A stretch of DNA of 64,000 nt, taken from the NCBI RefSeq assembly GCF_000744885.1, contig NZ_JQMV01000003.1, positions 1,550,001 to 1,614,000 of the forward strand, in the 5' to 3' direction. Every line of letters begins with the position of its first letter. Position 1 is the stretch's first letter. The notes under the pieces were generated by a model that saw only the letters and a program-made list of their open reading frames with translations, was not told the DNA's origin and did not search any database. Origin of the DNA: Thermus amyloliquefaciens (GTDB taxonomy: Bacteria > Deinococcota > Deinococci > Deinococcales > Thermaceae). The position numbers and the translations under genes are program-made. Positions 3,273 to 56,214 of this stretch are shown here, one piece after another.

Positions 3273-4256
3273 CTACAGGATGTCGTCCCGGATGCAGGCT
3301 TTGAAGTGGCCGGGGGCCACCTCCTTAAGCTCCGGCACCACCTGGGCGCACTCGGGAAGGGCGTACCGGCACCGGGTACGGAAAACGCAGCCCGACGGGG
3401 GGTTGATGGGCGAGGGGATATCCCCTTGGAGGACGATGCGCTCCCGCTTCACCGTGGGGTCAGGGATGGGCACCGCGGAAAGCAGGGCCTCGGTGTAGGG
3501 GTGCTTGGGGTTGCGGTAAAGCTCCCGGGAGGAGGCGATCTCCATCACCTTGCCCAGGTACATCACCGCCACCCGGTCGGAGATGTACTCCACCACCGCC
3601 AGGTCGTGGGCGATGAAGAGGAGGGTGAGGCCCAGCTCCTCCTTCAGGTCCATGAGGAGGTTCACCACCTGGGCCTGAATGGACACGTCCAGGGCGGAAA
3701 CCGGCTCGTCGGCCACGATGAACTCCGGGGCCACCGCCAGGGCACGGGCGATGCCGATCCTTTGCCTTTGGCCACCCGAGAACTCGTGGGGATACCGGCG
3801 CATGTGGTCCGGGGAAAGCCCCACCAGCTTCAAAAGCTCCGCCACCCTCTCCGTGCGCTCCTGGGGCGTCTTGCCGATCCCGTGGATGATGAGGGGCTCG
3901 GCGATGATATCCCCCACGGTCATCCGGGGGTTCAAGGAGCTAAAGGGGTCCTGGAAGATGATCTGCATCCGGCGGCGGTACGGGCGGAGCTTGTCCTTGG
4001 GAAGGTCCGTGATGTCCTGCCCGTCAAAGAGGATGCGCCCCCCCGTGGGCTCGATGAGGCGCAGGAGGGTGCGGCCCACCGTGGTCTTGCCGCTACCCGA
4101 CTCCCCCACCAGGCCCAAAACCTCCCCCTTCTTGATGGCGAAGGAAACCCCATCCACCGCCTTGACGCTTCCCACCACGCGGGAGAGGATCCCGCCGCGG
4201 ATGGGGAAGTGCTTTTTTAGGTCCTGGATCTCCAGGAGGACATGGTTTTCCCTCAT
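3273..4256 (-). CDS. dppF: Oligopeptide/dipeptide ABC transporter ATPase (DppF/OppF type)
   Basis: One of two cytoplasmic ATPases of a peptide importer. About 327 residues with Walker [10 protein letters not shown], the signature [14 protein letters not shown], Walker [13 protein letters not shown], the H-loop IAHD, and the C-terminal oligopeptide-binding extension with a cysteine cluster (CVFRTRC...C). The ATG at 4256 overlaps the dppD stop by 4 bases (ATGA), which decides the start. It is the last gene of the operon. Confidence 0.93.
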
Positions 4257-5272
4257 GCCCGCACCTCCCGGATCTCCCGCCAGCGCACGCACCGCACCTG
4301 GCGGCCATCACCCGTCTCCTCCAAGGGGGGCACCTCCCGGTCGCAAAGGCCTTCCACGTGGTGCTTGCACCGGGGGTGGAAGGCGCAACCCGGGGGCAGG
4401 TACAAGGGGTTGGGTACGTTGCCCGGGATGGCCTCGAGGCGCTCCCGATGCTCCGCCGCCAGGTCCAGCCGGGGCACGGAGTGGAGAAGCCCCCGGGTGT
4501 AGGGGTGCAGGGGCTCCTTGAAGAGGGGCACCACGTCCGCCTGCTCCACCGCCCGGCCCGCGTACATCACCACCACCCGGTCCGCCATCTCCGCCACCAC
4601 CCCCAGGTTGTGGGTGATGAAAAGGATGCTCATGCCGATCTCCTCCTGGAGCTTCTTCATCAGCTCCAGGATCTGGGCCTGGATGGTCACGTCCAAGGCG
4701 GTGGTGGGCTCGTCGGCGATGAGCAAGGAAGGGTTGCAGGAAAGCGCCATGGCGATCATCACCCGCTGGCGCATCCCGCCGGACATCTGGTGGGGGTAGT
4801 TGGCAAGGCGCTTCTTGGGCTCAGGGATGCCCACCAGGTCCAGCATGTGGGCCGCCAGCTCCATGGCCTCCTTGCGGCTTTTCCCCTGGTGGAGCATGAT
4901 GGCCTCGGCGATCTGGTCCCCCACCGTGTACACGGGGTTCAAGGAGGTCATGGGTTCCTGGAAGATCATGGCGATGTCGTTGCCCCGGATGCGGCGCATC
5001 TCCGCCTCCGAAAGCTTTGCCAGGTCCCGCACCTGCCCGTCCTTGCCCCGGAAGCGGATCTCCCCGCCCACGATCCTGCCTGGAGGCGTGGGGATGAGCC
5101 GCATGATGGAGAGGGCGGTCACGCTCTTCCCCGAACCGGACTCCCCCACCACCGCCAGGGTTTCCCCTTTGTCCACATGGAAGGAAACCCCGTCCACCGC
5201 CTTCACCACCCCATCGTCGGTGAAGAAGTGGACTTTAAGGTCTCTCACCTCCAGTAACCGCTTTTCGTCCAT
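4253..5272 (-). CDS. dppD: Oligopeptide/dipeptide ABC transporter ATPase (DppD/OppD type)
   Basis: The partner ATPase of DppF. About 339 residues with Walker [11 protein letters not shown], signature [15 protein letters not shown], Walker [14 protein letters not shown]-loop ITHN, and the C-terminal cysteine motif (CAFHPRC...CD). The start [12 protein letters not shown] aligns with the family. It sits between dppC and dppF. Confidence 0.93.
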
Positions 5273-43355: not shown

Positions 43356-43753
43356 AGACCATCCCCACGTGCGTGGGGGCTACGCCGTGGGCTAGGCCTA
43401 GGAAAGCCCGGACCGACGGTCCATCCCCACGCGTGTGGGGACTACTTAGCGGCGGTCCGGGCCCCATCCGCCCAGCCCGGTCCATCCCCACGCGTGTGGG
43501 GACTACGGGCCACCTGCTCCAGGATGAACCGGGACACCTCCCGGTCCATCCCCACGCGTGTGGGGACTACGTTCCCTCCTACTTGGGGGCCGTCGCCAAG
43601 GTCGGTCCATCCCCACGCGTGTGGGGACTACCTCCCCCCAGAGTCTGCATCTCCCGCCCAGCTCGGTCCATCCCCACGCGTGTGGGGACTACAATGCGAC
43701 GGGGAGGAGATTTTTTGGATTGAACGGTCCATCCCCACGCGTGTGGGGACTAC
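43356..43753 (-). CRISPR. CRISPR array 1, 7 repeats and 6 spacers, transcribed leftward
   Basis: 28-nt repeats begin at 43356 (degenerate), 43418, 43479, 43543, 43604, 43665 and 43726. In transcript orientation the hairpin is CCCCACACGCGTGGGG. Spacers are 33-34 nt with one of 36 (43507-43542). The leader is on the right (43754 onward), so the degenerate leftmost repeat is the oldest end. That last repeat contains CCCCACGCACGTGGGG, which is the array 2 version. Confidence 0.97.
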
Positions 43754-43811: not shown

Positions 43812-44168
43812 TTATTCCGAGGTTTGGTTTTCAAAATCCCCGTGCGCCACCTTGGTCATGCGCTTTAGCTTTTCAGCCTTGCGCAAAGCTTCAGCGGTGC
43901 GCACCGACACCAACACTATACCATCAAAGTCCCGCAAGGACCTGTCCTGGTAGCCGTGAAGCCTGAGGGCAAAGCCCTGTTCGTTGTTGGTGCGCCAGGC
44001 CATGGCGCAACGACCATCCCCAGCCTTTTCCACCACCTTCTCCCAAAGAAGCTCCCGCACCACAGCGCTCACCCGGCCCACGAAGACGCCCGTGTCCAGC
44101 TCCAAAAGCCAGCGGGTGAGCTCACCCCTCAGGCTCCTCGGTACCTTCTCCAGGACCATCACCACCAT
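43812..44168 (-). CDS. cas2: CRISPR-associated endoribonuclease/adaptation protein Cas2, type I-E
   Basis: 118 residues starting MVVMVLEKVPRSLRGELTRWL, a ferredoxin-like fold, with the I-E-type EKVVEKAGDGRCAMAWRTNNEQGF and C-terminal extension. It bridges two Cas1 dimers in the spacer integrase. The start lies inside cas1 (47-base overlap, different frame); the longer in-frame extension upstream is just cas1 shadow. Confidence 0.92.
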   Translation of the reverse strand: MVVMVLEKVPRSLRGELTRWLLELDTGVFVGRVSAVVRELLWEKVVEKAGDGRCAMAWRTNNEQGFALRLHGYQDRSLRDFDGIVLVSVRTAEALRKAEKLKRMTKVAHGDFENQTSE

Positions 44169-45099
44169 AGGCCACGCCCCCCTCCACCTCCCCTTCCGGG
44201 TCCCAAAGCCCCCCGGGGCGGGTGGGGTCTTCTTCTTCCTCCTTGGCCTCCTCGGGCAGACCAAGGCCTTGGAAAAGGTCCAGGAGGTCCTCCACCATCC
44301 TCTCCAGGAGCCTGGCCTCCAGGATGCGCTCCCGAAGCCTCTGACGCACCCGGCGCTCCACCTCGAGGTCCCCCTCCGCCGCCGCCAAGAAGGCGGCGGG
44401 CACCAGGACCTCGGTCTTGTAGAGGTCGGCCACATCGTAAACGAAGGAGAGGAGCTTCCCCGTGTGGATGAAGCCCAGGGCAGGGCTGAAGCCCGCGCTC
44501 ACGATGGCCGCATGGGCCAGGCCGTACAGGTAGGCCGCCCCCGAGGAAAGCGCCCGGTTCACCGGGTCGGAAGCCGCCCAGTCCCGGCGGTCGTAGCTCC
44601 GGCCCTTCCACGGCACCCCCGTTTCCTGGCTCCAACGGGCGTAGGCGGCCCGCACCCGTACCCCCTCGAGGCCCCGCACCTGCTCCAAGCTGAGGTCCCG
44701 GGGCAAGGGTTCCTGGAAGCGTTTTTCATACAGGCGGTACACCACCTCCAGGTGAAGCTTGGGATCGGCCCAGGCCCGGGCTTGACGCTGGAGGCGGAGG
44801 GCGCTGCGGGTGTCCCCCAGACCCTGGGCGTAGAAGCGGGCGTACCCCTCCCCTACCCAGCACACCGTGCAGCCGTTGCCGGCAAGGGCCCGGATGGCGG
44901 CATGGGTGATGCGGGTGCCGGGCCCCAGGAAAAGCACCCCCAGGGCGGCCACCGGCACCAAGGTGAGGCCCTCCCGGTCGTAGACGCCAATGCCTTGGGC
45001 CTCCTGCTCCAGGAAGGCGTGCTCCACGTACAGGTACGAAAGGCCATCCCGGAACTTGGGAAGCTCCTTCAGGTTGCGGGCCGGGGGAACGGGGGGCAT
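44122..45099 (-). CDS. cas1: CRISPR-associated integrase Cas1, type I-E
   Basis: 325 residues. Beta N-terminal domain (YLYVEHAFLEQEAQGIGVYD) and helical catalytic domain with VNRALSSGAAYLYGLAHAAIVSAGFSPALGFIHTGKLLSFVYDVADLYK, holding the metal-binding His and Asp. The acidic, low-complexity C-terminal tail (EEAKEEEED and beyond) is longer than the E. coli version and encoded where cas2 starts. Metal-dependent spacer integration with Cas2. Confidence 0.94.
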   Translation of the reverse strand: MPPVPPARNLKELPKFRDGLSYLYVEHAFLEQEAQGIGVYDREGLTLVPVAALGVLFLGPGTRITHAAIRALAGNGCTVCWVGEGYARFYAQGLGDTRSALRLQRQARAWADPKLHLEVVYRLYEKRFQEPLPRDLSLEQVRGLEGVRVRAAYARWSQETGVPWKGRSYDRRDWAASDPVNRALSSGAAYLYGLAHAAIVSAGFSPALGFIHTGKLLSFVYDVADLYKTEVLVPAAFLAAAEGDLEVERRVRQRLRERILEARLLERMVEDLLDLFQGLGLPEEAKEEEEDPTRPGGLWDPEGEVEGGVAYGGDGPGEGTEEPEG

Positions 45100-45102
45100 G
45101 GC

Positions 45103-45723
45103 CTAAGGACGCAGGGAGAGGAGGCCGAGGCCCAGCGCCTTCCCGGGGCCAATACCCCGCTCCAGGGTTATCAGGGCCGCCTCGGGGTCCACCACCTCCA
45201 GCACCCCCTCAAAGAGCACCGCCTGGACCTGGATCAGGTGGCCGTCCTTGTGGCGCATTTCCAGGAAGGTGTCCTGACGGATGTCCGCCAGGAGGCGCCC
45301 GTCCTCTTCCAAAAGGCGAAAACCCCCCTCCCGCAGCTTTCGCTCCAGCCAGAAGAGCTTTTCCTCGCGGGTCTTGAGGGCCACCCGTTCCCCGGTTTCC
45401 CGCGCCCGCTTGCTGGGGTTGGCCTTCAGGCGGAAGCGGAGGACCTGCCCGGGCCTGAGGGCAGGGCGGAAGGGCTTGGGGGGGAAAACCCGGGCGTACC
45501 CCTCCTCCAGCACGCTCCAGTCTGGCTCGGTGAGGGTCTGCACCAGGACCACGGGGTCCTCGAGGCCCCGGGTGGGCTCGAGGCGCCAAAGGAGCCGCTC
45601 TTTCTTCTCTTCTAGAGCCCGGGACACCGCCCGGGAGAGGGTACGGTGCATCTCGTAAGGGCTCGCCAGGTCCTTGCGGGCGGCTTTGGAACGCCGGTCA
45701 AGCACCAGCTTGCTGATCCACAT
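45103..45723 (-). CDS. cas6e: crRNA-processing endonuclease Cas6e (Cse3/CasE)
   Basis: 206 residues. Start MWISKLVLDRR, catalytic His likely H26 in YEMHRTLSRA, and the Gly-rich end GIGPGKALGLGLLSL expected for repeat-hairpin binding. It cleaves repeat RNA at the CCCCAC..GTGGGG hairpin. Overlaps cas5 by 26 bases. Confidence 0.92.
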   Translation of the reverse strand: MWISKLVLDRRSKAARKDLASPYEMHRTLSRAVSRALEEKKERLLWRLEPTRGLEDPVVLVQTLTEPDWSVLEEGYARVFPPKPFRPALRPGQVLRFRLKANPSKRARETGERVALKTREEKLFWLERKLREGGFRLLEEDGRLLADIRQDTFLEMRHKDGHLIQVQAVLFEGVLEVVDPEAALITLERGIGPGKALGLGLLSLRP

Positions 45724-46372
45724 GGGGTACCTCCCTCAACCTGACCCGGTCTTTCGGAAGGAGCTCCTCCCGAACGTACCGGGCACCAAACCGGCGCGCG
45801 GCGAACGGGGCGATGGGCTGGTCGTACACCAGCCGCCCCTCTGCCGCTTCCAGGACAAGGAGGAGATCCTCCCGGGGCCCATTCGGAAACAGGAAGGGGT
45901 AGTTCTGCAAAGCCTCCTCCAGGGGTTCTTCCCGCAAGCCGTCTTCCAGGTAAGGCGGGGGGCTTGGCACGTACCCTTTCCGGCCCAGGTAAAGGACGAA
46001 GCGGGGGTTCAGGAGGGCCCGGTGGGCCTCCTCCAGGAGGGGCCTAGGCCCCTCGAGGCCCACCAGGAAGGCGGCATCGGAGAGGTAGTAACGCCAGCTC
46101 TGGACGTTGCCCTTCCCCGTGAGGTCCGCCCGCAGCACCTCCTGGGCCGTCTGGTAGTCCACCCGCAGGACCCCCTTCCGGTCCACCCGCACCCCCATGC
46201 GCAGGGCGGCCAGGTCGGAGACGTCCTCCCCCCGGTCCCGGCCCAAGGCGGCGGCCAGGAGGCCCAGAACGCCGCTTTTGGTGGGGTAGGGCCAGGTGTC
46301 CCGGTGGTCAAAGCGGCTCCGGGTGCCCCAGGACTGCATGGGACCTTGGAGCCGAAGCAGGAGCGTGGGCAT
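45698..46372 (-). CDS. cas5: Cascade subunit Cas5e (CasD)
   Basis: About 224 residues from MPTLLLRLQGPMQSWGTRSRFD, the characteristic Cas5e N-terminus, with TKSGVLGLLAAALG following. It caps the 5' handle of crRNA in Cascade. The ATG at 46372 is selected because it immediately follows the cas7 stop. Confidence 0.92.
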   Translation of the reverse strand: MPTLLLRLQGPMQSWGTRSRFDHRDTWPYPTKSGVLGLLAAALGRDRGEDVSDLAALRMGVRVDRKGVLRVDYQTAQEVLRADLTGKGNVQSWRYYLSDAAFLVGLEGPRPLLEEAHRALLNPRFVLYLGRKGYVPSPPPYLEDGLREEPLEEALQNYPFLFPNGPREDLLLVLEAAEGRLVYDQPIAPFAARRFGARYVREELLPKDRVRLREVPHVDQQAGA

Positions 46373-46373
46373 G

Positions 46374-47498
46374 CTAACCTCCCGGGGCAAGCAACGCCTT
46401 CAGGGCCTCCTCCGCCCTCTTTCTCAGCCCGCCTAGCCCATCCACCAGGTCAATGCCCTGGACCTCTGCCTCGGTGAGGTTTAAAGCACCCTTCCACTCG
46501 GGCTCTAAAGCGCCGTAAGCCCGGTCAAACTTGGCCCACTCCCGGACCAGGGCCTCCACGGAAAGGGCGGAAAGGGCTTTGCCCTCCTTGGGCCAGATGG
46601 GCCTTTCAAAGGCGGTGGCCAGGTTGCGGGGCAACCCCACCCCGGCACGGAAAGCCAGGAAGAGGGGCGGGTTGTGGGCGGCAAAACTGTTCTGCTTGCC
46701 CGAGGGCAGGGTGAGGGCGAACGCCTCCAGGAAGGCCAAGGCCCCCTTCTGGGCCAGTTCCCGGTCCCCTTGCAGGTTCTCCAGGAGCTTGTCCAGGTTC
46801 ACCACCGCATAGCGGTACATGGTGGCGGAGTAAAACTCCACGTCCCCCATCATCCCCGCCCCCGTCTCCTCCTTGGGGTTCAGATCGTCCACGGCGGTGT
46901 AGAAGTCAAACTCCCGGTCCACCTTGTGGGTGGAAAGGGCATGGGCCACCTGGCAGGCGGCGTCCACGCCAAACTCGGGGCGGTCCGCCAGCATCCGGCC
47001 GAAGAGGGCCAGGTCCACCGCTTTACCCCCGTCCAGCACCTTTTCCAAGGCCTTCTTGAGCTCCCCGTCCACCTCGGCTTTCTTCTTGCCTTTGGCCTCC
47101 TGAGCGGAGAGGGCCTCGAGGTTCTCCCGGATGAGCCCGGCCAACCGGTCCAGCTCCCCCGCCCCCAGGAAGAGGAGGTACTCCGTCCTCCCTTCCTTTA
47201 CCCCAAGGCCCAGGGCGTTCAGGGCGTTTTCCACCGCCCGCTGGGCCTTGTCCTCGGGCACGCCCTCCAGCCGCTTCAGAAGGGCCTCCAAGAGGCGCTT
47301 GGTGCGCACCGCCCGCTCAGCCTCAGAAAGGAGGGGCCACTCCCTAAAGGCCACCCGCACCGCCCGCTTCTGGGCCTGGCTGGAGATGCGGGCCCGGCGG
47401 AAGCCGCCGAAGAGGGCGTCCTTGGGGCTTCCCGTGTCGTCCCGGTTCAGGTTGCTGGGGGCCACCGTCTGGATCACGTGCACTTCCAGAAGCTTCAT
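46374..47498 (-). CDS. cas7: Cascade backbone subunit Cas7e (Cse4/CasC)
   Basis: 374 residues starting MKLLEVHVIQTVAPSNLNRDDTGSPKDALFGGFRRARISSQAQKRAVR, classic Cas7e. Six copies form the crRNA-binding filament of Cascade. Central DREFDFYTAVDDL and GAGMMGDVEFYSATMYRYAVVNLDKL also match. Overlaps cse2 by 4 bases. Confidence 0.95.
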   Translation of the reverse strand: MKLLEVHVIQTVAPSNLNRDDTGSPKDALFGGFRRARISSQAQKRAVRVAFREWPLLSEAERAVRTKRLLEALLKRLEGVPEDKAQRAVENALNALGLGVKEGRTEYLLFLGAGELDRLAGLIRENLEALSAQEAKGKKKAEVDGELKKALEKVLDGGKAVDLALFGRMLADRPEFGVDAACQVAHALSTHKVDREFDFYTAVDDLNPKEETGAGMMGDVEFYSATMYRYAVVNLDKLLENLQGDRELAQKGALAFLEAFALTLPSGKQNSFAAHNPPLFLAFRAGVGLPRNLATAFERPIWPKEGKALSALSVEALVREWAKFDRAYGALEPEWKGALNLTEAEVQGIDLVDGLGGLRKRAEEALKALLAPGG

Positions 47499-47998
47499 GC
47501 CTTCACCTCCTCTATCTCCTCTTGCGTCTCCTCTTCCCGCACGCCGTAGTACTCCCGGGCCCAGCGGACCTGGACCCGCCTCCTCCCGTCAAACCAGAGG
47601 AGGAGGTCCTCAAGCAACTTGGCGAAGTCTAAACCACCTTCCACCAGGCCCACCGCCTGGCGCAGGCGAAAAGGGAGCTGGTCCCGGTCCGCATCCAAAA
47701 GGGCCTGGAAACGCTTTCCCACGCTCTTGGAATCCCGGGCCTGCCCGGCTTGCCTAAGGGCCTGGGCCAGGGTGCGCCCCTCCTGATGGGCCCCGTCCTT
47801 CAGGGCGTAGAGGGCAGCCACCAGGTAGTGGGCCTCCCGCTCCCACCCCTCCCCGTCCACAAAGGCCTCCACATAGGGGAGTACAGGCGGGTATTCCCCG
47901 GGCGGGAAGGCCAAGCTCCTCCGCAGGGCTGCCCGGGCCGCGGTCCAGGTCCGGCTTCCCTTAAGCCTCTCCAAGTAATCCACAAAGGCCTTGCTCAT
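47495..47998 (-). CDS. cse2: Cascade small subunit Cse2 (CasB)
   Basis: 167 residues, all-helical, starting MSKAFVDYLERLKGS with a basic segment (RTWTAARAALRRSLA) and SVGKRFQALLDADRDQLPFRLRQAVGL. The start overlaps the cse1 stop by 4 bases (ATGA), which fixes it. Cse2 dimers stabilise the displaced strand in the R-loop. Confidence 0.93.
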   Translation of the reverse strand: MSKAFVDYLERLKGSRTWTAARAALRRSLAFPPGEYPPVLPYVEAFVDGEGWEREAHYLVAALYALKDGAHQEGRTLAQALRQAGQARDSKSVGKRFQALLDADRDQLPFRLRQAVGLVEGGLDFAKLLEDLLLWFDGRRRVQVRWAREYYGVREEETQEEIEEVKA

Positions 47999-49458
47999 GG
48001 TGTCTTCCCCTCCTTTCCCCACGTGGGGGCCAGGGCGGAGCCCATGACCCTTTCCCCCTCCGCCAAAGCCTTGAGGTGCCTCCCTTCTGTGCCCAAAAAG
48101 GCGCGGGTTTCCTCCCAGGCCCGAAGGGCCGCCCGCCGCACCTCCTCCCGCCAGAAGTCCATGGCCCCCGGCCCGGCGAGCTTTTCCAGGAACTGGGGGA
48201 AACGTCCATCCAGTTCCGCCCAATAAAGCCTCAGGAGGGGAAGGGAGTCCTGGAAGCGGCGAAGCTCCTCCGGGTCCTTGTCCCCCAGGAGCCCTTGGGC
48301 TACCCGCCGGGCTACCCCGGACAGTGCCCTACCCACCTCCTCGGCCAGCTCGAGGCCCTTCTGCAAAAGCTCCTCCGCCACCGGGGAGAGGAAACCCTGG
48401 GGCAGGGGGTAGACCTCCCGGCGCACATCCAGCACCTTGGCCTGGTCGGACACCTGGCCCGGCACCCGAAGCTCCCGCCTTAGGCCTAGCTCCTCTGCCA
48501 GCCGGAGCGCGTGGGCCAGGGTGGCGGGAAAGCTCCCCCCAGCGGCGGGAAGCATGGCGGAGAAGTCGCGCCAGAAGCTCTTCTCCACGCTAAGGCGCAG
48601 GGGCGACACCTGGCCCTTGGCATCCAGGCGGTGGGCCACCATGGGGTCGCGGAAACCCACCTCCAAAGGTTCCACCCCGGGGCCGTAGGCTATTGCCCGC
48701 ACGCCGCTTCCCTCGTCCAAAAGGAGCACCCCCCGGCTGGGCCAGGCGTAGACCCGGGCAGCGCCCTGAAGGGGCCACTTGGTGGCGTGCCCCGCCACGT
48801 CCTGGGTACGGAGGGGAGGGAGTTCCCACACCGGCACCCCGGGGTCCTTCTGGGGCACCAGGTTCAGGACCAAGGTCTGGAAAAGGTTCTCCCCCACCAC
48901 CAAGAAGGCGGCGGGCCGGGCCAGGGGGGCGTCCTTGGCCGAGGTGACCCCAAGCCGCTTAAGAAGCCCGCCTGGAGCGTAAGCCTGGTGCACCAAGAGG
49001 GCCCTAGCCGCCTGGGCGTAGGCGGCCAAGGGCACGTTCGCTTCCGTGGTGTGGTCAAAGAGGGTGGGGTTGTTGCCGCTTGCCATCTCCGGCAAGAGCT
49101 TGGCCCAGGGGAGGGGGTCTTTGGTGGGCAGGTCGGGGATTTGCAGGAAGGGAGCCTCTTCGTGGAAAAGATAGAAGCGGTCGTGGAAACGGCTTAGGTA
49201 GCCCTCCAGGGCCTTTGAGTCAAACTCTCCCCGCTCCAGCAAGTCCAGGGCATCCCAAAAGCCCCCGACCGGGGGCAGGGCCCGGTAGAGCACCGCCAGG
49301 AGGAGGCGGTGGAGGGCGGCCTCCTCGAGGGGGGAGGGGGTCTCAATGCGCTCTATGGCCGGGGCCCTGACCAGGGCCTCCCATAGGCTTACTTCCCGCA
49401 CCCGTCCGCCCTCACGCACGGGAATCCAGGGTTCTTCCAGCAGGTTGAACTTGGCCAA
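47995..49458 (-). CDS. cse1: Cascade large subunit Cse1 (CasA/Cas8e)
   Basis: 487 residues starting MAKFNLLEEPWIPVREGGRVREVSLWEAL, the standard Cse1 opening. It recognises the PAM and recruits Cas3. The later LSRFHDRFYLFHEEAPFLQIPDL segment and C-terminal four-helix bundle region fit the family. A ribosome binding site (AGGTGTCC-type complement near 49460) is weak. Confidence 0.93.
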   Translation of the reverse strand: MAKFNLLEEPWIPVREGGRVREVSLWEALVRAPAIERIETPSPLEEAALHRLLLAVLYRALPPVGGFWDALDLLERGEFDSKALEGYLSRFHDRFYLFHEEAPFLQIPDLPTKDPLPWAKLLPEMASGNNPTLFDHTTEANVPLAAYAQAARALLVHQAYAPGGLLKRLGVTSAKDAPLARPAAFLVVGENLFQTLVLNLVPQKDPGVPVWELPPLRTQDVAGHATKWPLQGAARVYAWPSRGVLLLDEGSGVRAIAYGPGVEPLEVGFRDPMVAHRLDAKGQVSPLRLSVEKSFWRDFSAMLPAAGGSFPATLAHALRLAEELGLRRELRVPGQVSDQAKVLDVRREVYPLPQGFLSPVAEELLQKGLELAEEVGRALSGVARRVAQGLLGDKDPEELRRFQDSLPLLRLYWAELDGRFPQFLEKLAGPGAMDFWREEVRRAALRAWEETRAFLGTEGRHLKALAEGERVMGSALAPTWGKEGKTP

Positions 49459-49511: not shown

Positions 49512-52319
49512 TTAACCTGAACCGTACACCACCCCCAGCTCCGGGTCCAGCTCCACCCGCACGCCCCCGCCCTCATGAGCGAAGACCCGACCCACCTCCA
49601 GGAGCCTCAAACCCCGCAGGAGGCCGCTTCGCCGCCAAGCGGCCGGGGGGTCCTCCCTAAGGAGCACCTGGGGAATGGGGTAACGGGAAAGGCGCACCGC
49701 CCGGGACCAGAGGGCCACCGCCTCCTCCTTGGAAAGCTCCCCCTTGAGGCGCACGGGGCGCTTGCCCTCCGGGTCCAGGGCCCAGCTTTCCCCCACCCGG
49801 TAGAGGGGCACCACAGGCACGCTGGGCTCCCCAAGGCGGGTGAGAAAGCGCTGGGTCCTTTTGTCCTCCGCGTCGTCGTCCAGCTTGAAGTCGGCGGCCA
49901 GGGCGCTGGCCTCGGTGTCGGAGAGGAGGGCCTTAAGGTCCATGAGGGACAAGTTTTCCGCCGTCTTGGCCTCCCCTTCCCAACGCTGCTGTAAGCGCCT
50001 GTAGCTTTCTTGCGCCCGCTCCCTCAGATCCTCCGGAAAGCCCACCGGGGTGCGGCCGTAGACCTCCTCCAGGAGGGCCTCGAGGTCCCCCGGCATCCCA
50101 AGGGCCTTCCGGCCCTGCAGGGAAAGCCAGGTGGAAAGGAGGAGGTAGTCCTCGTAAACCTTATCCCAGCGAAGCTCCCCGCCAAACTCGGGCTTGCCCT
50201 GGAGGCCCCCCACCAGGAGGAGGGGCTCCCCATGCCCCTCAGGCCTTACCCGCACGTGGCGGTGGAGCCGCCCCAGGCGCTGGAAGAGGAGGTCAATGGG
50301 GGCAAGGTCGCTATAGAGGAGGTCAAAGTCCAGGTCCAGGCTCTGCTCCGCCACTTGGGTGGCCACCAAGACGGCCCGCTCGGGCCGGGGGCCTCCTTTA
50401 CCGAAGAGGCTAAGGGCCACCATCTCCCGCAGGGCCCTCTCCTCGGCGGGAAAGCGGGCGTGGAGGAGGAAGACCAGGGTGCCGTTCTTAAGGCGCTTCC
50501 CCACCACGAAGTCCCCTTTCCCTCCCCGCGCCTTCCAGAGTTCGCCCCAGGGGCCCTCCGAGGCAGGATGGCCCAGGGCCTCCAGAAGCCCCTCCAGGGT
50601 GAGCCTCTCCCCTTCCCCCAAGGCCTGGTAGAGGGTCTGGGCCCGGTCCACGGTGTTCACGACGGCCCCTAGGGCCCCAGGTAGCCGCTCCAAAAGGGTC
50701 TTGGCAAGGGAGTCCGGCTCCACGGGGGCGGCCTGAAGGCGCACCTGCCTGGACTTCTGGGGCACGTGCTTGGCCTCCAAAAGCTTCCCCCCGGCAAAGG
50801 CCGCCACCCGGGGGTAAGACGGTAGCCGCTCCACTTGAGCCCCCCAGGCCCTAAGGAGCTCCTCCCGCTTGGCGCTGGGCAGGGTGGCGGTCATGAGCAC
50901 CACGCTGGAGCCCAAGGCCTTCAGCCAGCGGAGGAGGGCCACAAGAAGCCCCGAGGTGTAGGTATCGTAGGCGTGCACCTCGTCCAGGACCACCACCCGG
51001 TTCATGAGCCCCCAGAGGCGGATGAAGTGGTGCTTCACCCTCAGTACCCCCAAAAGGGCCTGGTCCAGGGTGCCCACCCCGTGGCCTGCCAGCATGGCCC
51101 GTTTCCTGGCGGAGAACCAGGCGGAGGCCCCCACCCCACCCTCCTCCGCGTCCTGGGCCGTGGCCAGGCCCTTTTCGGAATAACGGGCATCGTAAACCTG
51201 GGCGGGCTTGGACTGCTCCAGGAGCTTCTCGTACTCCGGATTTAGCAGCGCCGCCCCGTGCTGGAGCTGAAGCTCCAGGAACTCCCCCGCCGCCAGGCGC
51301 TCCAGGAAAGCCCTTACCCGGGGGAAAAGCCCGTTGGCCGTGGCCTGGGTAGGAAGGGCCACGTAAAGCCCCCGGTGCCCCAAGCGTTCCTGGAGGCGGT
51401 GGTAGGCGTACAGGGCAGCCTCGGTCTTCCCCAGGCCCATGGGGGCCTCCACCAGGAGAAGGGTAGGCTCCCGGATTTCCTGGACCCTATCCAGAAGGGA
51501 AGACACCCCCTCCTGCAAGGGGTTGGGTGCAAAGGGGAAGAGGTCCCGAAAGGTCCTTTCCCCCTTGGAAAGGGGCTTGGGCCAGGGGAGGCTCTTTAGG
51601 GCCTCCCGGGCCTTCTCAAGCGCCTCTTCCCAGTAGCCCAAGGCTTCGGGGTCCCGGCCGTAGGGGAAGAAGGTGGGGTCGGAAGCGATCCAGTCGGCAA
51701 AGGAGGCCAGGGCCATGACCCGGAGGAGGGCCTCCGGGCTGGGGTCGGGAAGAGGAGAGAGGGGCTCGAGGCCCAAGGCCTTCGCCAGGGCTTCCACCAA
51801 ATAGGTCCTGGCTTCCCGCCAGCCTTGGGGCTCGCTCCGCACGTGCCGCCTTCCCGAGGCACGCTCCCCCTCCGCCGCCGGGAAGCCGTGGTGGGCCCCC
51901 AGGGCCTGGGCCAGGAGGCAAGCCGCCTCTTTGGAAAAGCCCCATTCCCGGAGGACCTCCCTAAGGTAGAGGTCGGTGAAGACCCCGTGGGCCACCCAGG
52001 ACTCCCGGATCAGCTCCTCGTTCCAGGTTAGCCCGGCCTGACGCACCCGCTCGGCCCCCTCGGGCCAGGCCGCCTGAAAGACGGGGCTTGCCTTGCCCAG
52101 GTCGTGAAGCCCCGCCAGAAAGGCGGTGAGGCGTAGGGCCTTTTCCTCCTCCAGCTCCCAGTCCTCGGCGTAGAACCTGCGGGTACGGGCAGGCTCCTCC
52201 TCTAGGACCGCAAGGGCCACCGCCGCCGTGTCCAGCATGTGGGCCAGGAGGGGGTGGAAGGGGTGGAAGGGGTCCCCGCTTTTGGCCCAGAGGGCTAAGG
52301 CCGCACGCTTGGGGTCCAT
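49512..52319 (-). CDS. cas3: CRISPR-associated helicase-nuclease Cas3
   Basis: 935 residues. N-terminal HD nuclease (HPLLAHMLD, then LHDLGKASP at about 71-79; AHHGFP), SF2 helicase with Walker A APMGLGKTEAAL, DEVH box VVLDEVHAYDTYTSG, MTATLPS, and ATQVAEQSLDLDFD/QRLGRLHRH in the second RecA lobe. It unwinds and degrades DNA licensed by Cascade. It lies 53 bases upstream of cse1; the short gap holds no gene. Confidence 0.95.
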   Translation of the reverse strand: MDPKRAALALWAKSGDPFHPFHPLLAHMLDTAAVALAVLEEEPARTRRFYAEDWELEEEKALRLTAFLAGLHDLGKASPVFQAAWPEGAERVRQAGLTWNEELIRESWVAHGVFTDLYLREVLREWGFSKEAACLLAQALGAHHGFPAAEGERASGRRHVRSEPQGWREARTYLVEALAKALGLEPLSPLPDPSPEALLRVMALASFADWIASDPTFFPYGRDPEALGYWEEALEKAREALKSLPWPKPLSKGERTFRDLFPFAPNPLQEGVSSLLDRVQEIREPTLLLVEAPMGLGKTEAALYAYHRLQERLGHRGLYVALPTQATANGLFPRVRAFLERLAAGEFLELQLQHGAALLNPEYEKLLEQSKPAQVYDARYSEKGLATAQDAEEGGVGASAWFSARKRAMLAGHGVGTLDQALLGVLRVKHHFIRLWGLMNRVVVLDEVHAYDTYTSGLLVALLRWLKALGSSVVLMTATLPSAKREELLRAWGAQVERLPSYPRVAAFAGGKLLEAKHVPQKSRQVRLQAAPVEPDSLAKTLLERLPGALGAVVNTVDRAQTLYQALGEGERLTLEGLLEALGHPASEGPWGELWKARGGKGDFVVGKRLKNGTLVFLLHARFPAEERALREMVALSLFGKGGPRPERAVLVATQVAEQSLDLDFDLLYSDLAPIDLLFQRLGRLHRHVRVRPEGHGEPLLLVGGLQGKPEFGGELRWDKVYEDYLLLSTWLSLQGRKALGMPGDLEALLEEVYGRTPVGFPEDLRERAQESYRRLQQRWEGEAKTAENLSLMDLKALLSDTEASALAADFKLDDDAEDKRTQRFLTRLGEPSVPVVPLYRVGESWALDPEGKRPVRLKGELSKEEAVALWSRAVRLSRYPIPQVLLREDPPAAWRRSGLLRGLRLLEVGRVFAHEGGGVRVELDPELGVVYGSG

Positions 52320-52328
52320 GGGCCCACC

Positions 52329-53297
52329 CTACCCGCCCAAGGCGACAGGGGCTGTCGCCTTTTCCAGGACCTGCCTGGCCTCCGCCAGCCAGAGCTCCCG
52401 GAGCTCCGGGGGAGAAAGGACCTCCACCCGGGGCCCGAAGCTCTGGACCCAGGCCAGCACCTCCCAGGGCACCCCGCCCTTGAAAGGGGCGGCCCAAAGC
52501 CGGGCCAGGAGGCTCCCGTCGGATAGCTCCCGCTCCACCTGGAGGCCGGGGTAGTCCCCCTCCAGCACCCGCCAGGCGGCCTCGGGGGCAAAGCGGAGGC
52601 GCACCTCCACCCCCCCTTCCCGCACCCCCACCACCCCCCAGGCCTGGCGGAAGTAGGCGTTCGGATCAAAGTCCTGAGGGAGGTGATAGGTTTCTTCCAG
52701 AAGGCGGGCGTGGCGCATACGGGAGAGCTTGAGGGTGAGGACTGCCCGGTGGTAGGTGCGCTCATAACCCACCGCGTAGAGGCCCAGGTTGGTGCGGTTG
52801 GCCTCGAGGAAGTACACCAAAAGCTCCTTCGGCCGCCAGTTCTTGGAACCCCCGGAGCGGTACTCAAAGGCCAGGACGCGCCTCTCCAGAAGGGCCCGGG
52901 CCACCATCTCCAGGGTGCGGGAATCCCCCTGGCGCCCCTTCAGGCCCTCGGTGCTCTTTAGGAGGAGGCCGCGCAGGGGCTCAGGGAGCATCCGGGCCAG
53001 CTTTTCCAGGGCGTTCCCATACTGCCGGGTTGGGGCCTGGTGGTAAAGAAGCCTCCCCGCCGCGAAGAGGGCCAAGGCCTCCACAGGGTGGAGGACAGGC
53101 GGGGCGTCCCTCAGGCGGTAGCGCCCCCAGGCCACCCGCTCCACGGGGTAGCCCTGGAGGGCGAGGGCCTCGAGGTCCCGCTCCACCGTGCGGGGGCTCA
53201 CGCCGTAGCGCCGGGCCAACTCGGCCACGCTATAAGGCCTGAGTTTCAGCTCTTCCACGAGGTCCAAAAGGCGCTCGGCTTTGGGTTTTCCCGCCAT
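52329..53297 (-). CDS. WYL-domain transcriptional regulator of the CRISPR locus
   Basis: 322 residues: N-terminal winged helix (LDLVEELKLRPYSVAELARRYGVSPRTVERDLEAL, about 10-45), a WYL domain (about 135-215, including RVLAFEYRSGG and LGLYAVGYERTYHRAVLTLKLSRM) and a C-terminal WCX region. The domain normally senses ligands or nucleic acid. It is ten bases upstream of cas3 and same strand, so it likely controls the cas operon. Confidence 0.88.
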   Translation of the reverse strand: MAGKPKAERLLDLVEELKLRPYSVAELARRYGVSPRTVERDLEALALQGYPVERVAWGRYRLRDAPPVLHPVEALALFAAGRLLYHQAPTRQYGNALEKLARMLPEPLRGLLLKSTEGLKGRQGDSRTLEMVARALLERRVLAFEYRSGGSKNWRPKELLVYFLEANRTNLGLYAVGYERTYHRAVLTLKLSRMRHARLLEETYHLPQDFDPNAYFRQAWGVVGVREGGVEVRLRFAPEAAWRVLEGDYPGLQVERELSDGSLLARLWAAPFKGGVPWEVLAWVQSFGPRVEVLSPPELRELWLAEARQVLEKATAPVALGG

Positions 53298-53371: not shown

Positions 53372-53416
53372 TGGCCGAGTTGCCAGAGCGGATCTTGACA
53401 ATCCGGCCTCGAGTCG
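53372..53416 (+). other. Degenerate tRNA-Ser-like fragment
   Basis: TTGCCAGAGCGG resembles the 5' part of a tRNA-Ser. It is followed by CGGAT-CTTGACA-ATCCG, a 5-bp stem with a 7-base loop like an anticodon arm (TGA). The D-loop is shortened, and the variable and T-arms are not recognisable. It is probably a relic or a chance resemblance. Confidence 0.25.
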
Positions 53417-53439
53417 CCAGCTTACTTGGAGCCGATCTT

Positions 53440-53492
53440 TTTAAATACCCTTAGAGGGGGGTAACCGGGGGTTTTTGCCGTCCTGGTCATGT
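53440..53492 (+). promoter_or_regulatory. Leader of CRISPR array 2
   Basis: Matches the array 1 leader over about 50 bases (ACCCTTAGAGGGGGGT, GGGGGTTTTTGCCGTC, GGTCATGT) and abuts the first repeat. A TTTTTAAATA stretch at its left may contribute a -10 region. Confidence 0.8.
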
Positions 53493-54619
53493 GTAGTCCC
53501 CACGCACGTGGGGATGGACCGTTAGCATATACCCGTTTCCCTTTAGCTAGGGCGTAGTCCCCACGCACGTGGGGATGGACCGGCATGGCAAGGCTCCTCG
53601 GGTACGGGATTGATGTAGTCCCCACGCACGTGGGGATGGACCGTCGGCGGGGGGCCCTTGAGTAACACGCCCCCCGTAGTCCCCACGCACGTGGGGATGG
53701 ACCGGTGCGCATCGGCAAAACCCCATTCGTGGGCATGTAGTCCCCACGCACGTGGGGATGGACCGATGGGTTCCATGGCCGCCCAGCCTCACACAACGTA
53801 GTCCCCACGCACGTGGGGATGGACCGGTCAGGGGACGCCGGGACGTTCCCCGTGCTGTGTAGTCCCCACGCACGTGGGGATGGACCGCGATGAGGCATCC
53901 CACAGACGGGACACCTAGCGTAGTCCCCACGCACGTGGGGATGGACCGGGGGCCAGCGAACGGGGAACCACCCAGACCCCCGTAGTCCCCACGCACGTGG
54001 GGATGGACCGTGATTCCGGCTCCCTGGGCCCGGGAGGGGGCCGTAGTCCCCACGCACGTGGGGATGGACCGTCGATATATGCAGCACGCCGATCTGGCAG
54101 GCCGTAGTCCCCACGCACGTGGGGATGGACCGGTACCATGAGGCACCTCCACGTCCGCGAAAAGTAGTCCCCACGCACGTGGGGATGGACCGATATGGAC
54201 CCCAGACAACTTTGGCAGGGTAATGTAGTCCCCACGCACGTGGGGATGGACCCTCCTGCAGGTACGGGATGCCCCCGAGGTCCACGTAGTCCCCACGCAC
54301 GTGGGGATGGACCGCCCAGGTAACCCCCTATCTCCTCCTCGGCCTTTGTAGTCCCCACGCACGTGGGGATGGACCGAGTACCTCCTGGCCGCTTAGGGCC
54401 ATGATGCGGTAGTCCCCACGCACGTGGGGATGGACCGGGCCACCTGATACCCGCTCCTGGGCCCTGCGGGTAGTCCCCACGCACGTGGGGATGGACCTAG
54501 CGGGGGGCGTGTTACTCATGGGTCCCCCGCGTAGTCCCCACGCACGTGGGGATGGACCGAGCCTCGGTTCCATGTCTTTATGTGTAAGACCGTAGTCCCC
54601 ACACGCGTGGGGATGGCCT
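53493..54619 (+). CRISPR. CRISPR array 2, 19 repeats and 18 spacers, transcribed rightward
   Basis: 28-nt repeats with hairpin CCCCACGCACGTGGGG recur every 60-62 bases from 53493 to 54592. Spacers are 32-34 nt. The leader is on the left. The terminal repeat (54592-54619) is degenerate at its end and contains CCCCACACGCGTGGGG, the array 1 version. Spacer 3 (53643-53675) and spacer 17 (54498-54530) are near-complements. Confidence 0.98.
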
Positions 54620-54673: not shown

Positions 54674-56214
54674 TCAGCGGACCCGGCCAGAACGAGGGGT
54701 GCGGGGCGAGGCTTCAGGCAAAGCCTCCACCCGCTTGGCCCGTTCCAGCTTCACCCCCTGCACCTCGGCCAGACGGGGGAGGTCCTGCGGGCGCAGGTCC
54801 ACGTAAAAGGCCTCCTCCCCCTGGGCAATCTTGCCCACCTCGAGGCCCCTTTCCTTCAACAAGGCCACCAGCCGGGGCAGGGTGAGCCTCTGCCCCGTGG
54901 CCTTGAAGGTGAGCCAGCCCTCCTCCCCGGTGAGGAGGCTCTTTTCCTTGGGGGCCCCGCCCAGGAGAAGGGCCATGAGGGCGGCCACCACCTCCACCCT
55001 CCCCTCGGCGAAGAGCTTCCCGGCGAAGTCCAGGTAGAGCTTGTAGTCCCTCTCCGGCACCCGGGCCAGCCGGGCCAGGAGGTGGTGCCATTTGGCCTCC
55101 AGGACCTCCTCCGGGGTGGGCGGGTTCACCCGGCGGAAGGTGCGGCCCACCGCCCGCTCCAGCTCGGAAAGCTCCCTTCTTTCCCGAGGCCCGTAAAGGA
55201 TGACCACCTCGCCCCCCTCCCCGCGCGGCCCGTGCGCCCGGAGCGGTGCTGGTAGGTCTCCGGCTTGTCGGGGAGGCGGTAGTGCACCACCAGGTCCACC
55301 TCGGGGATATCCAGGCCGCGGGCGGCCACGTCCGTGGCCACCAAGACCTTGACCTCCCCCTCCCGGAAGGCCCTCATCACCCTTTCCCGGTCGCTTTGCG
55401 AAAGGTCCCCGTGGATGGCCCGGGCGGGGTGGCCCAGGCGCAGGAGGCCCGTGGCCACCTCCTCCGTCTCGGCCTTGGTGCGGGTGAAGACGATGGCCCG
55501 CTTAGGGGCCTTGACAAAAAGGAGATCGGAGAGGAGGGCAAGGCGGTCCCCAGGGGCGGGGATAGCCTCCTCCTGGTAGGTGACCCCCTCCTCCCGCACC
55601 ACGTTGATGACCACGGGGCTTTTCATGTACCGCTCCGCCAGCTTCCGGGCCCAGGAGGGCAGGGTGGCGGAGAAGAGGAGGGTTTGCCGCTCTTTAGGGG
55701 TGGCGGCCAGGATGGCCTCCACCTCCTCCTCAAAGCCCATGGAGAGCATCTCGTCCGCCTCGTCCAAAACGGCGATTTGCACTTGGGAGAGGTTAAGGAC
55801 CCCCTGCTTCAGGTAGTCCAGGGCCCTCCCGGGGGTGGCCACCACCACGTCCGCCCCCCGGAGGAGCTCCTCCTTCTGCTTGCCGTAGCCGGTGCCCCCG
55901 TACACGGTGACCACCTTGAGGTGGGGGGCCACGGCCTGGAGCTCCCCGGAAACCTGCAGGGCCAGCTCCCGGGTGGGGGTGAGGACCAAGGCCCTGGGGG
56001 GGCGGCCCCGCTCGGAGGAGGCCTCGAGGGCCTGGGCGATGGGCAGGGCGAAGGCCAGGGTCTTGCCGGTGCCCGTGCGGGCCTGGCCGATGAGGTCCTT
56101 GCCCTCGAGGGCCAGGGGCAAGGCCGCCGCCTGGATGGGGGTGGGGGAAGTGATGCCGCGGCGCAAAAGGGCTTCCTTGATCTCGTCCTTCAGGGGAAAG
56201 TCTTTGTACTCCAT
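54674..56214 (-). pseudogene. DEAD-box RNA helicase Hera-like, frame-interrupted
   Basis: The first part (to 55218) has a full DEAD-box core: TSPTPIQAAALP, ARTGTGKTLAF, PTRELALQV, TPGRALDYL, LDEADEMLS, SATLP, ARGLDIPEVDLVVHY and HRSGRTGRAGRG. At a run of six G (55212-55217 on the other strand C6) the frame shifts; the second part (55207-54674, GTG or continuation) reads VVILYGPRERRELSELERAVGR, then the dimerisation and RNA-binding region of Hera. Seven G would give a single product of about 512 codons, the expected size. Confidence 0.85.

What the first reader, a model, noticed from the sequence alone, without database searches (positions are those of the whole stretch)
53643..54530. Two spacers of array 2 target nearly the same sequence in opposite orientation
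Spacer 17 (54498-54530), reverse-complemented, matches spacer 3 (53643-53675) over 29 bases with two mismatches (shared TGAGTAACACGCCCCCC). The two were acquired far apart in time and on opposite strands, suggesting a repeatedly encountered, slightly variable element. The mismatches may reflect escape or related phages.
Basis: seen in the sequence. Interest (0 to 1): 0.6.

Follow-up and report, generated by a model that had tools for sequence, protein, structure and literature searches.

The report
Two spacers against one phage origin
A hot-spring bacterium's CRISPR array stored nearly the same short piece of filamentous-phage DNA twice, and that piece is very probably the hairpin where the phage starts copying its genome, a stretch these phages hardly change.

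Summary
Spacer 3 and the reverse complement of spacer 17 agree at 27 of 29 bases; 30 shuffled spacer sets came nowhere near. The array belongs to a complete type I-E locus. Both spacers match one 31-nt element inside gene II (replication endonuclease) of Thermus filamentous phages, with 2-5 (spacer 17) and 4-8 (spacer 3) mismatches over 33 nt in 12 phages or proviruses. In 27 genomes of the genus the 23-base core occurs only in gene II and in these two spacers. The element looks like a rolling-circle nick-site hairpin: 9-bp stem with compensatory changes in distant relatives, conserved 13-nt loop, strongest synonymous constraint in gene II. Gene II carries most Rep_trans motifs. So a repeatedly met, slightly variable element is right; the predicted PAMs on both strands were not found. 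Array 2 is enriched for inovirus spacers (6 of 18: four firm, two probable). An acquisition hotspot around the origin was hinted at by one spacer set and not reproduced in a second. Most likely: ordinary I-E immunity that twice hit a highly constrained origin.

The parts
53643..53675 (+). Spacer 3 of array 2: 4 nt plus 29 of the 31 nt of the inovirus gene II hairpin
54498..54530 (+). Spacer 17 of array 2: the whole 31-nt hairpin plus 2 nt (TA), in opposite orientation to spacer 3; first base T instead of the usual G
53493..54619 (+). CRISPR array 2, type I-E repeats (18 regular repeats and one degenerate terminal repeat at 54592), 18 spacers; leader on the left, so spacer 1 is the newest
53372..53492 (+). 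Leader region of array 2; its end is found, with up to 3 mismatches, before I-E repeats in 18 of 27 genomes of the genus
53582..53614 (+). Spacer 2: matches inovirus proviruses at the start of gene II (E about 1e-5; the base triplet before the protospacer is ATG, not an AA PAM)
53826..53858 (+). Spacer 6: probable match to the 3' part of inovirus gene IV (E 2.6e-4; TAA directly before the protospacer in phiOH3 and phiOH16)
53887..53919 (+). Spacer 7: matches inovirus sequence at the end of gene IV (E about 1e-5; AA before the protospacer in 4 of 5 listed phages)
54132..54163 (+). Spacer 11: probable match inside inovirus gene II, about 130 nt upstream of the hairpin (E 7e-4; AA before the protospacer)
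49512..52319 (-). cas3
   Evidence: ORF limits of all cas genes are the mechanical ones; true starts may differ
47995..49458 (-). cse1/cas8e
47495..48223 (-). cse2/cas11
46374..47498 (-). cas7e
45698..46390 (-). cas5e
45103..45723 (-). cas6e
44122..45099 (-). cas1
43812..44435 (-). cas2 (domain at residues 90-175 of the mechanical ORF, so the real start is probably downstream)
52329..53297 (-). WYL-domain transcriptional regulator next to the leader
43359..43753 (-). CRISPR array 1 (same system, 6 spacers, none matching an inovirus at E 0.003)

Best explanation
Spacers 3 and 17 are two separately acquired type I-E spacers against one and the same 31-nt DNA element of Thermus filamentous phages (Paulinoviridae, Thomixvirus and relatives). 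The element lies inside gene II and is the putative double-strand origin: a hairpin whose 13-nt loop presents the site nicked by the gene II replication endonuclease (a Rep_trans-like enzyme) to start rolling-circle replication. The strain met related filamentous phages repeatedly (6 of 18 spacers of this array match them), took up origin DNA from two phage variants at different times, and kept both spacers. They overlap recognisably because the origin is the most constrained DNA in gene II. Because the element is a near-palindrome its two ends read alike, so a spacer from it can face either way; as the array reads, the two guides face opposite strands of the replicative form. Shown: the pair, the locus type, the identity of the target, conservation and covariation of the hairpin. 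Inferred: nicking at the loop, exposure history, any protection by the spacers.
For: Targets: spacer 17 matches gene II of phiOH3, phiOH16, Zuza8, Zuza27 with E 8e-6 to 1e-4 in a 2.3-Gb phage collection, spacer 3 with E 4e-4; 12 of 12 phages/proviruses compared carry the element. The 23-base core is confined to inovirus gene II and the two spacers in 27 genomes. Origin: the same 9-bp stem and 13-nt loop in G043 and G045, about 32% amino-acid identity to phiOH3 gene II, where G-C pairs have become C-G pairs; 87.7% of cells paired, 5 of 9 pairs with a change on both sides, 0 of 500 shuffles as high on any of five measures; DNA fold of the full-stem variant -12.2 kcal/mol, z -3.4. The three 10-codon windows over the hairpin rank 1-3 of 419 for third-position identity at codons with the same amino acid (0.94-0.96; gene mean 0.51). 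Gene II protein: invariant RxD (R150, D152), YxKxxE (Y248, K250, E253) and RxE (R280, E282) in 11 homologs, as in the Rep_trans motif list of PMC5714925 (passages); Rep_trans enzymes of pT181-type plasmids nick in the loop of an origin hairpin (PMC4797284, passages). Exposure: 6 of 18 array-2 spacers against 11 of 677 other unique I-E spacers match inoviruses at E<=1e-3 (Fisher P 1.3e-6); at E<=1e-4, 4 of 18 against 6 of 677 (P 6e-5).
Against: No exact match to either spacer was found, and the AAG PAM is not at the required place in any of the 12 sequences. Pfam Rep_trans is reached only weakly (2 of 11 members, best E 0.021), the second motif is not exact, and the structure model failed (pLDDT 31). 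No nicking test. The hairpin of phiOH3 and five others has only 7 paired positions, and phiOH3's fold is weaker (-8.0 kcal/mol, z -1.8, 12 of 200 shuffles as good); spacer 3 alone has z -1.0. Four of the 5 double changes come from one lineage (G043/G045), the fifth is a single G-U in IMG2728, so they are few events. At E<=1e-3 reversed spacers give 4 hits against 17 real ones, so spacers 6 and 11 are less certain; at E<=1e-4 it is 0 against 10. AA directly before the protospacer is seen for 7 of 15 other firm inovirus spacers, not for all.
Confidence: 0.82

Rival explanations
1. The origin is a true acquisition hotspot: Rep nicking, cruciform extrusion or fork collapse at the hairpin feeds prespacers to Cas1-Cas2, so spacers gather at and around the nick site.
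For: In the first set (695 unique I-E spacers, 17 genomes) 5 of 10 firm inovirus spacers (E<=1e-4) lie within 200 nt of the hairpin, 9.3% expected from a leave-one-out detectability model (P 0.001; without the pair 3 of 8, P 0.03). Two of 6 inovirus spacers of array 2 fall on a site that makes up 0.19% of detectable positions (0.34% of those with AAG), nominal P 6e-5 (1.7e-4) if the site had been named beforehand. Clusters at oriT and oriV are described for I-F adaptation (PMC5059440, passages). AAG stands at the base of the hairpin in 6 of 12 sequences, so the site can be sampled.
Against: Not reproduced: of 277 unique T. thermophilus plasmid-borne I-E spacers, 1 of 7 firm inovirus spacers lies within 200 nt (P 0.50) and 0 on the hairpin; with the looser E<=1e-3, 2 of 9 within 100 nt (P 0.05) and within 200 nt (P 0.18). 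In the first set, without the pair, nothing stands out within 50 or 100 nt (P 0.23 to 1) or at E<=1e-5 (1 of 5 within 200 nt, P 0.41); several windows and limits were tried. No further copy of the 23-base core outside gene II in 27 genomes (a spacer covering only part of it would be missed) and no Thermus hit for spacer 17 among plasmids. Some overlapping pair among 6 randomly placed spacers arises in 2-4% of trials, among 17 in 20-32%.
Confidence: 0.12
2. Primed adaptation: mismatched spacer 17 (or 11, 7) primed further uptake from the same phages, and spacer 3 arose nearby.
For: Array 2 is enriched for inovirus spacers; the matched strands, oldest to newest, are -, -, - (17, 11, 7) then +, +, + (6, 3, 2), a run order with 10% chance given three of each (my arithmetic). 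Priming by mismatched targets is standard for type I-E (PMC6568314, PMC5904413: search listing with start of abstract only).
Against: The order statistic is weak, two of the six are only probable, and the strand of spacer 17 is uncertain. Priming explains several inovirus spacers, not two on one 31-nt site; spacers 3 and 17 derive from different variants. Compatible with, and not separable from, the main explanation.
Confidence: 0.3
3. Spacer 17 is a flipped insertion, so both prespacers came from the same strand.
For: Its first base is T (625 of 706 begin with G) and its reverse complement begins with G; flipped spacers are described (PMC5059440, passages).
Against: No enrichment of a terminal C among non-G spacers: 39 of 79 against 257 of 616, P 0.23. 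In G007a/b the as-read protospacer has AA before it, the flipped one CA. That I-F study estimates flips at less than 0.5%.
Confidence: 0.25
4. The shared core is a coincidence of GC-rich low-complexity sequence in unrelated targets.
For: The arms are G and C runs.
Against: Shuffled sets never approach the match; both spacers find the same gene in the same phages.
Confidence: 0.01

Closest known systems
Type I-E CRISPR-Cas of Thermus (PMC6452258; T. thermophilus HB8 and others)
   Same: Repeat consensus, 33-nt spacers, gene order and arrays around the cas operon
   Different: Nothing in the machinery; only the double hit on one phage element is unusual. That paper (section 17 read) finds I-E spacers evenly spread over the phages it maps (IN93, phiKo, phiFa; phiMa in a supplement) and mentions no map for the inoviruses
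Thermus filamentous phages phiOH3, phiOH16, Zuza8, Zuza27 (Thomixvirus)
   Same: Carry the element inside gene II
   Different: These four differ by 3-4 bases from spacer 17 and 4-6 from spacer 3 over 33 nt; no exact match
Double-strand origin of pT181-family plasmids (ICRII hairpin, Rep_trans initiator; PMC4797284, passages)
   Same: Initiator with RxD, YxKxxE, RxE motifs; hairpin with a conserved loop as putative nick site
   Different: Here the hairpin is inside the initiator gene; nicking not tested; a second (binding) repeat was not looked for systematically
Spacer hotspots at oriT/oriV in type I-F adaptation (PMC5059440, passages)
   Same: Spacers at replication or transfer origins
   Different: Those are experimental profiles; here two natural spacers and no reproducible excess

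Membership tests
Type I-E CRISPR-Cas | cas3, cse1, cse2, cas7, cas5, cas6e, cas1, cas2 together | tested here: met
   All eight found by Pfam between arrays 1 and 2
Type I-E CRISPR-Cas | I-E repeat and about 33-nt spacers | tested here: met
   Repeat fits the Thermus I-E consensus of PMC6452258; 541 of 706 spacers are 33 nt including the PAM-derived base, 625 of 706 begin with G
Type I-E CRISPR-Cas | AAG PAM at the targets | tested here: inconclusive
   AA directly before 7 of 15 firm inovirus protospacers other than the pair; not seen for spacer 3 (0 of 12) and only as AAT for spacer 17 (2 of 12)
Thermus inovirus gene II element as target | Same element and position in known members | tested here: met
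   12 of 12 phages/proviruses examined, plus G043, G045 and G050 more distantly
Rep_trans (PF02486) initiators | Pfam family match | tested here: inconclusive
   2 of 11 members, best E 0.021; none for phiOH3
Rep_trans (PF02486) initiators | Motifs N' (D), RxD, T/SxY/ExG, YxKxxE, W/LxRxE (list from PMC5714925, passages) | tested here: inconclusive
   RxD and YxKxxE invariant in 11 of 11, D9 nearly invariant, RxE of the last motif invariant but its first position is V, I or W; second motif not exact (SGFTFG in phiOH3)
Rep_trans (PF02486) initiators | Fold of the catalytic domain | tested here: inconclusive
   Model with pLDDT 31, unusable
Rolling-circle double-strand origin | Conserved hairpin with a conserved loop | tested here: met
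   Stem with compensatory changes, conserved loop, top synonymous constraint
Rolling-circle double-strand origin | Nicking by the cognate Rep in the loop | not testable with these tools
   Needs purified protein or mapping of 5' ends

The most novel reading that the evidence does not exclude
The nicked or extruded origin hairpin of a rolling-circle phage is itself a preferred prespacer: Cas1-Cas2 of type I-E captures the near-palindromic 31-nt hairpin in either orientation, giving paired guides against both strands of a site the phage can alter only by compensatory changes that must also suit the coding sequence of its own replication gene.
Probability: 0.1. Interest if true: 0.65.

Novelty: new member of a known kind. 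Interest (0 to 1): 0.42.

Why it matters
It gives a concrete, testable origin of replication for Thermus filamentous phages (a term search of the phiOH3 paper, and the section on Zuza phages that I read, show none) and natural spacers aimed at it twice. It makes a question directly testable: do spacers against an origin hairpin, constrained both as DNA structure and as coding sequence, last longer against escape than spacers elsewhere, and is such a site sampled more often during adaptation.

Tried and rejected
Exact target search: the 15-base core was scanned through IMG/VR (12 stretches, 3 of them inoviruses, none an exact protospacer) and through genome contigs (79 stretches, none titled Thermus, all at least 9 mismatches from both spacers; these tools warn that records near the window's genome may be left out). 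Plasmids, queried with spacer 17 only, gave one 24-base match in Pararhizobium.

Flip test: negative. Origin hotspot: positive in the first spacer set at some settings, not reproduced in T. thermophilus plasmid arrays; windows and limits were not fixed beforehand. Reversed-spacer controls: 4 at E<=0.003 and 4 at 1e-3, 0 at 1e-4 in the first set; 4 at E<=0.003, all above 1e-4, in the second. Rows dropped: hits of spacers to chromosomal flanks of the provirus loci (present) were removed by trimming the loci; G071p was but not in the trimmed set; G050 was left out of the pair count because of an 11-nt duplication.

Resemblance of the phiOH3 gene II N-terminus to Cas5e: not found when the profile of 11 gene II proteins was run against the PDB (no hits), so taken as probable chance. 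Structure prediction of gene II: useless, hence no fold search. Pattern for more distant hairpins in IMG/VR: only the two known contigs; gene II profile in IMG/VR: the same three contigs as before. Phage IN93 was fetched for a PAM survey that I did not carry out. Paper searches, judged by titles and starts of abstracts plus passages of the papers cited, showed no paper on spacers against an inovirus origin; the library lacks most subscription papers, so this is weak.

Full report
Observation. Array 2 has 18 regular repeats of GTAGTCCCCACGCACGTGGGGATGGACC plus a degenerate last repeat, with the leader on the left. Spacer 3 (53643-53675) and the reverse complement of spacer 17 (54498-54530) match at 27 of 29 bases, offset 4. 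In the 39 I-E spacers of this genome the best pair scores 23, where 30 shuffled sets reach at most 5. Among 706 I-E spacers of 17 genomes it is the only overlapping pair in opposite orientation.

Locus. Between arrays 1 and 2 lie cas3, cse1, cse2, cas7, cas5, cas6e, cas1, cas2 and a WYL regulator, a complete type I-E system.

Target. Both spacers match gene II (replication endonuclease) of the filamentous phages phiOH3, phiOH16, Zuza8 and Zuza27. Further carriers are two IMG/VR contigs, proviruses in G001, G007 (two), G021 and G024 and, in another genus of the family, G071. Full-length mismatches are 2-5 for spacer 17 and 4-8 for spacer 3 over these 12. With up to 3 mismatches the 23-base core occurs in 5 of 27 genomes, only in gene II and in the two spacers. 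The host genome has no gene II of its own: 0 matches with the PHROG family, and the one weak protein match lies in cas5e.

The element. In G024p it reads GCGGGGGGC-CCATGAGTATCAC-GCCCCCCGC-TA: a 9-bp stem and a 13-nt loop. Spacer 17 is this 31-nt hairpin (with one stem and one loop difference) plus TA; spacer 3 is 4 nt plus 29 of the 31. In phiOH3 and five others 7 of the 9 positions pair. In G043 and G045, with about 32% amino-acid identity to phiOH3 gene II, the stem is GCGGCCCCC/GGGGGCCGC with the loop CCATGAGTAGCAC; G050 has a third stem sequence and a duplicated loop segment. On 9 distinct sequences 87.7% of cells pair, 5 of 9 pairs show a change on both sides, and 0 of 500 shuffles reach any of the five measures; slid structures score lower, except that one slide ties on the two counts of double changes. 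Four of those five changes come from the G043/G045 lineage. As single-stranded DNA the full-stem variants fold at -12.2 kcal/mol (z -3.4), the phiOH3 variant at -8.0 (z -1.8). In a codon alignment of 9 family members, the three 10-codon windows over the hairpin rank 1 to 3 of 419 for third-position identity at codons with the same amino acid (0.94-0.96 against a mean of 0.51). The DNA structure is kept while the protein changes: the peptide GGPMSNTPPA becomes GPPMSSTGAA in G043.

The enzyme. phiOH3 gene II protein has no Pfam match; 2 of 11 homologs reach Rep_trans, best E 0.021. Of the Rep_trans motifs listed in PMC5714925 (passages), RxD and YxKxxE are invariant, RxE of the last motif is invariant, the N-terminal D is nearly invariant, and the second motif is not exact. 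Rep_trans initiators of pT181-type plasmids nick in the loop of an origin hairpin (PMC4797284, passages), and the family includes the initiator of CTXphi (PMC5714925, passages). I therefore take the hairpin as the nick site of the double-strand origin. Nicking itself is untested.

Exposure. Of 695 unique I-E spacers, 17 match inoviruses at E<=1e-3 (reversed control 4, shuffled control 1.2) and 10 at E<=1e-4 (reversed 0, shuffled 0.2). Array 2 holds 6 of its 18 at the looser limit (2, 3, 6, 7, 11, 17) and 4 at the stricter one (2, 3, 7, 17), against 11 and 6 of 677 elsewhere (P 1.3e-6 and 6e-5). Spacers 6, 7 and 11 have AA directly before the protospacer in at least one phage, spacer 2 does not; the putative Thermus I-E PAM is AAG (PMC6452258, section 17 read). 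Over both spacer sets 7 of 15 firm inovirus spacers other than the pair have AA there. Oldest to newest, the matched strands in array 2 are -, -, -, +, +, +, which may reflect priming but is weak.

PAM and orientation. Spacer 17 starts with T; a flipped insertion is possible, but non-G spacers as a class show no sign of flipping (39 of 79 against 257 of 616 end in C, P 0.23).

Hotspot question. A leave-one-out model of detectability puts 0.19% of detectable 33-mers on the hairpin (29 nt or more; 0.34% of those with AAG). Two of 6 there is unlikely if the site is named beforehand (6e-5; 1.7e-4), but some overlapping pair among 6 arises in 2-4% of random placements, among 17 in 20-32%. In the first set 5 of 10 firm spacers lie within 200 nt (9.3% expected, P 0.001), 3 of 8 without the pair (P 0.03); without the pair there is no excess within 50 or 100 nt, nor at E<=1e-5. 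The second test did not reproduce it: of 371 T. thermophilus plasmid-borne I-E spacers from 10 of the 11 regions examined (277 unique, none shared with the first set; the SG0.5JP17-16 region holds a type I-C locus and gave none), 7 match inoviruses firmly and 1 of these lies within 200 nt (P 0.50). I used 11 of the 29 plasmid records listed, some of them near-relatives. So the double hit is best seen as repeated exposure plus an unusually conserved target.

Consequences worth testing. The spacer-17 guide is the 8th and the spacer-3 guide the 49th most strongly self-folding of 706, and the two are complementary to each other (duplex -64.8 kcal/mol). A guide that folds on itself may work poorly; a target constrained as DNA and as protein may be hard to escape. 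Both are open.

Novelty. Machinery and principle are known; the putative origin hairpin of these phages and its double targeting are new details as far as the papers seen and searched here show.

Noticed in passing
L099 (phiOH3 NC_045425.1) 4028-4276; L185 (NZ_AP025605.1) 56138-56175; L186 (NZ_AP025611.1) 44682-44716; L187 (HB8 pTT27) 189597-189619: The phage intergenic region between genes III and VI is a large inverted repeat. Spacers in arrays with the I-U repeat of PMC6452258 on two T. thermophilus plasmids match it (38 of 38 and 33 of 35 bases) and a HB8 I-E spacer partly does. It resembles about 170-180 nt of the small T. scotoductus plasmid pHIG22 (73-80%), so it may be a single-strand origin or packaging signal.
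   Followed up: partly
L187, I-E array of T. thermophilus HB8 pTT27, spacers 13, 20, 22: HB8 carries three I-E spacers matching filamentous phages with 5 mismatches each over full length, yet phiOH3 infects HB8 (PMC11437467, section 12 read): a ready-made case for escape or priming.
   Followed up: no
L187 spacer 20 (HB8) and L153 spacer 8 of 9 (G017): The protospacers of these two I-E spacers from different species lie on opposite strands of the same gene II stretch of phiOH3, centred 84 and 90 nt upstream of the hairpin: another opposite-strand overlap, between hosts.
   Followed up: no
window 45698-46390 (cas5e) against phiOH3 gene II residues 15-97: 33% identity over 86 positions between the phage replication endonuclease and Cas5e (pairwise E 4e-8; the only PDB sequence hit up to E 10 is 4n77 at E 0.015). 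Not found with the family profile, so probably chance; a viral Cas mimic would be the exciting alternative.
   Followed up: partly
G007 (L107, L114, L115): Genome G007 carries two inovirus proviruses with the hairpin; in the second, the gene II match breaks off at query residue 354 and resumes at residue 331 about 1.15 kb further on.
   Followed up: no
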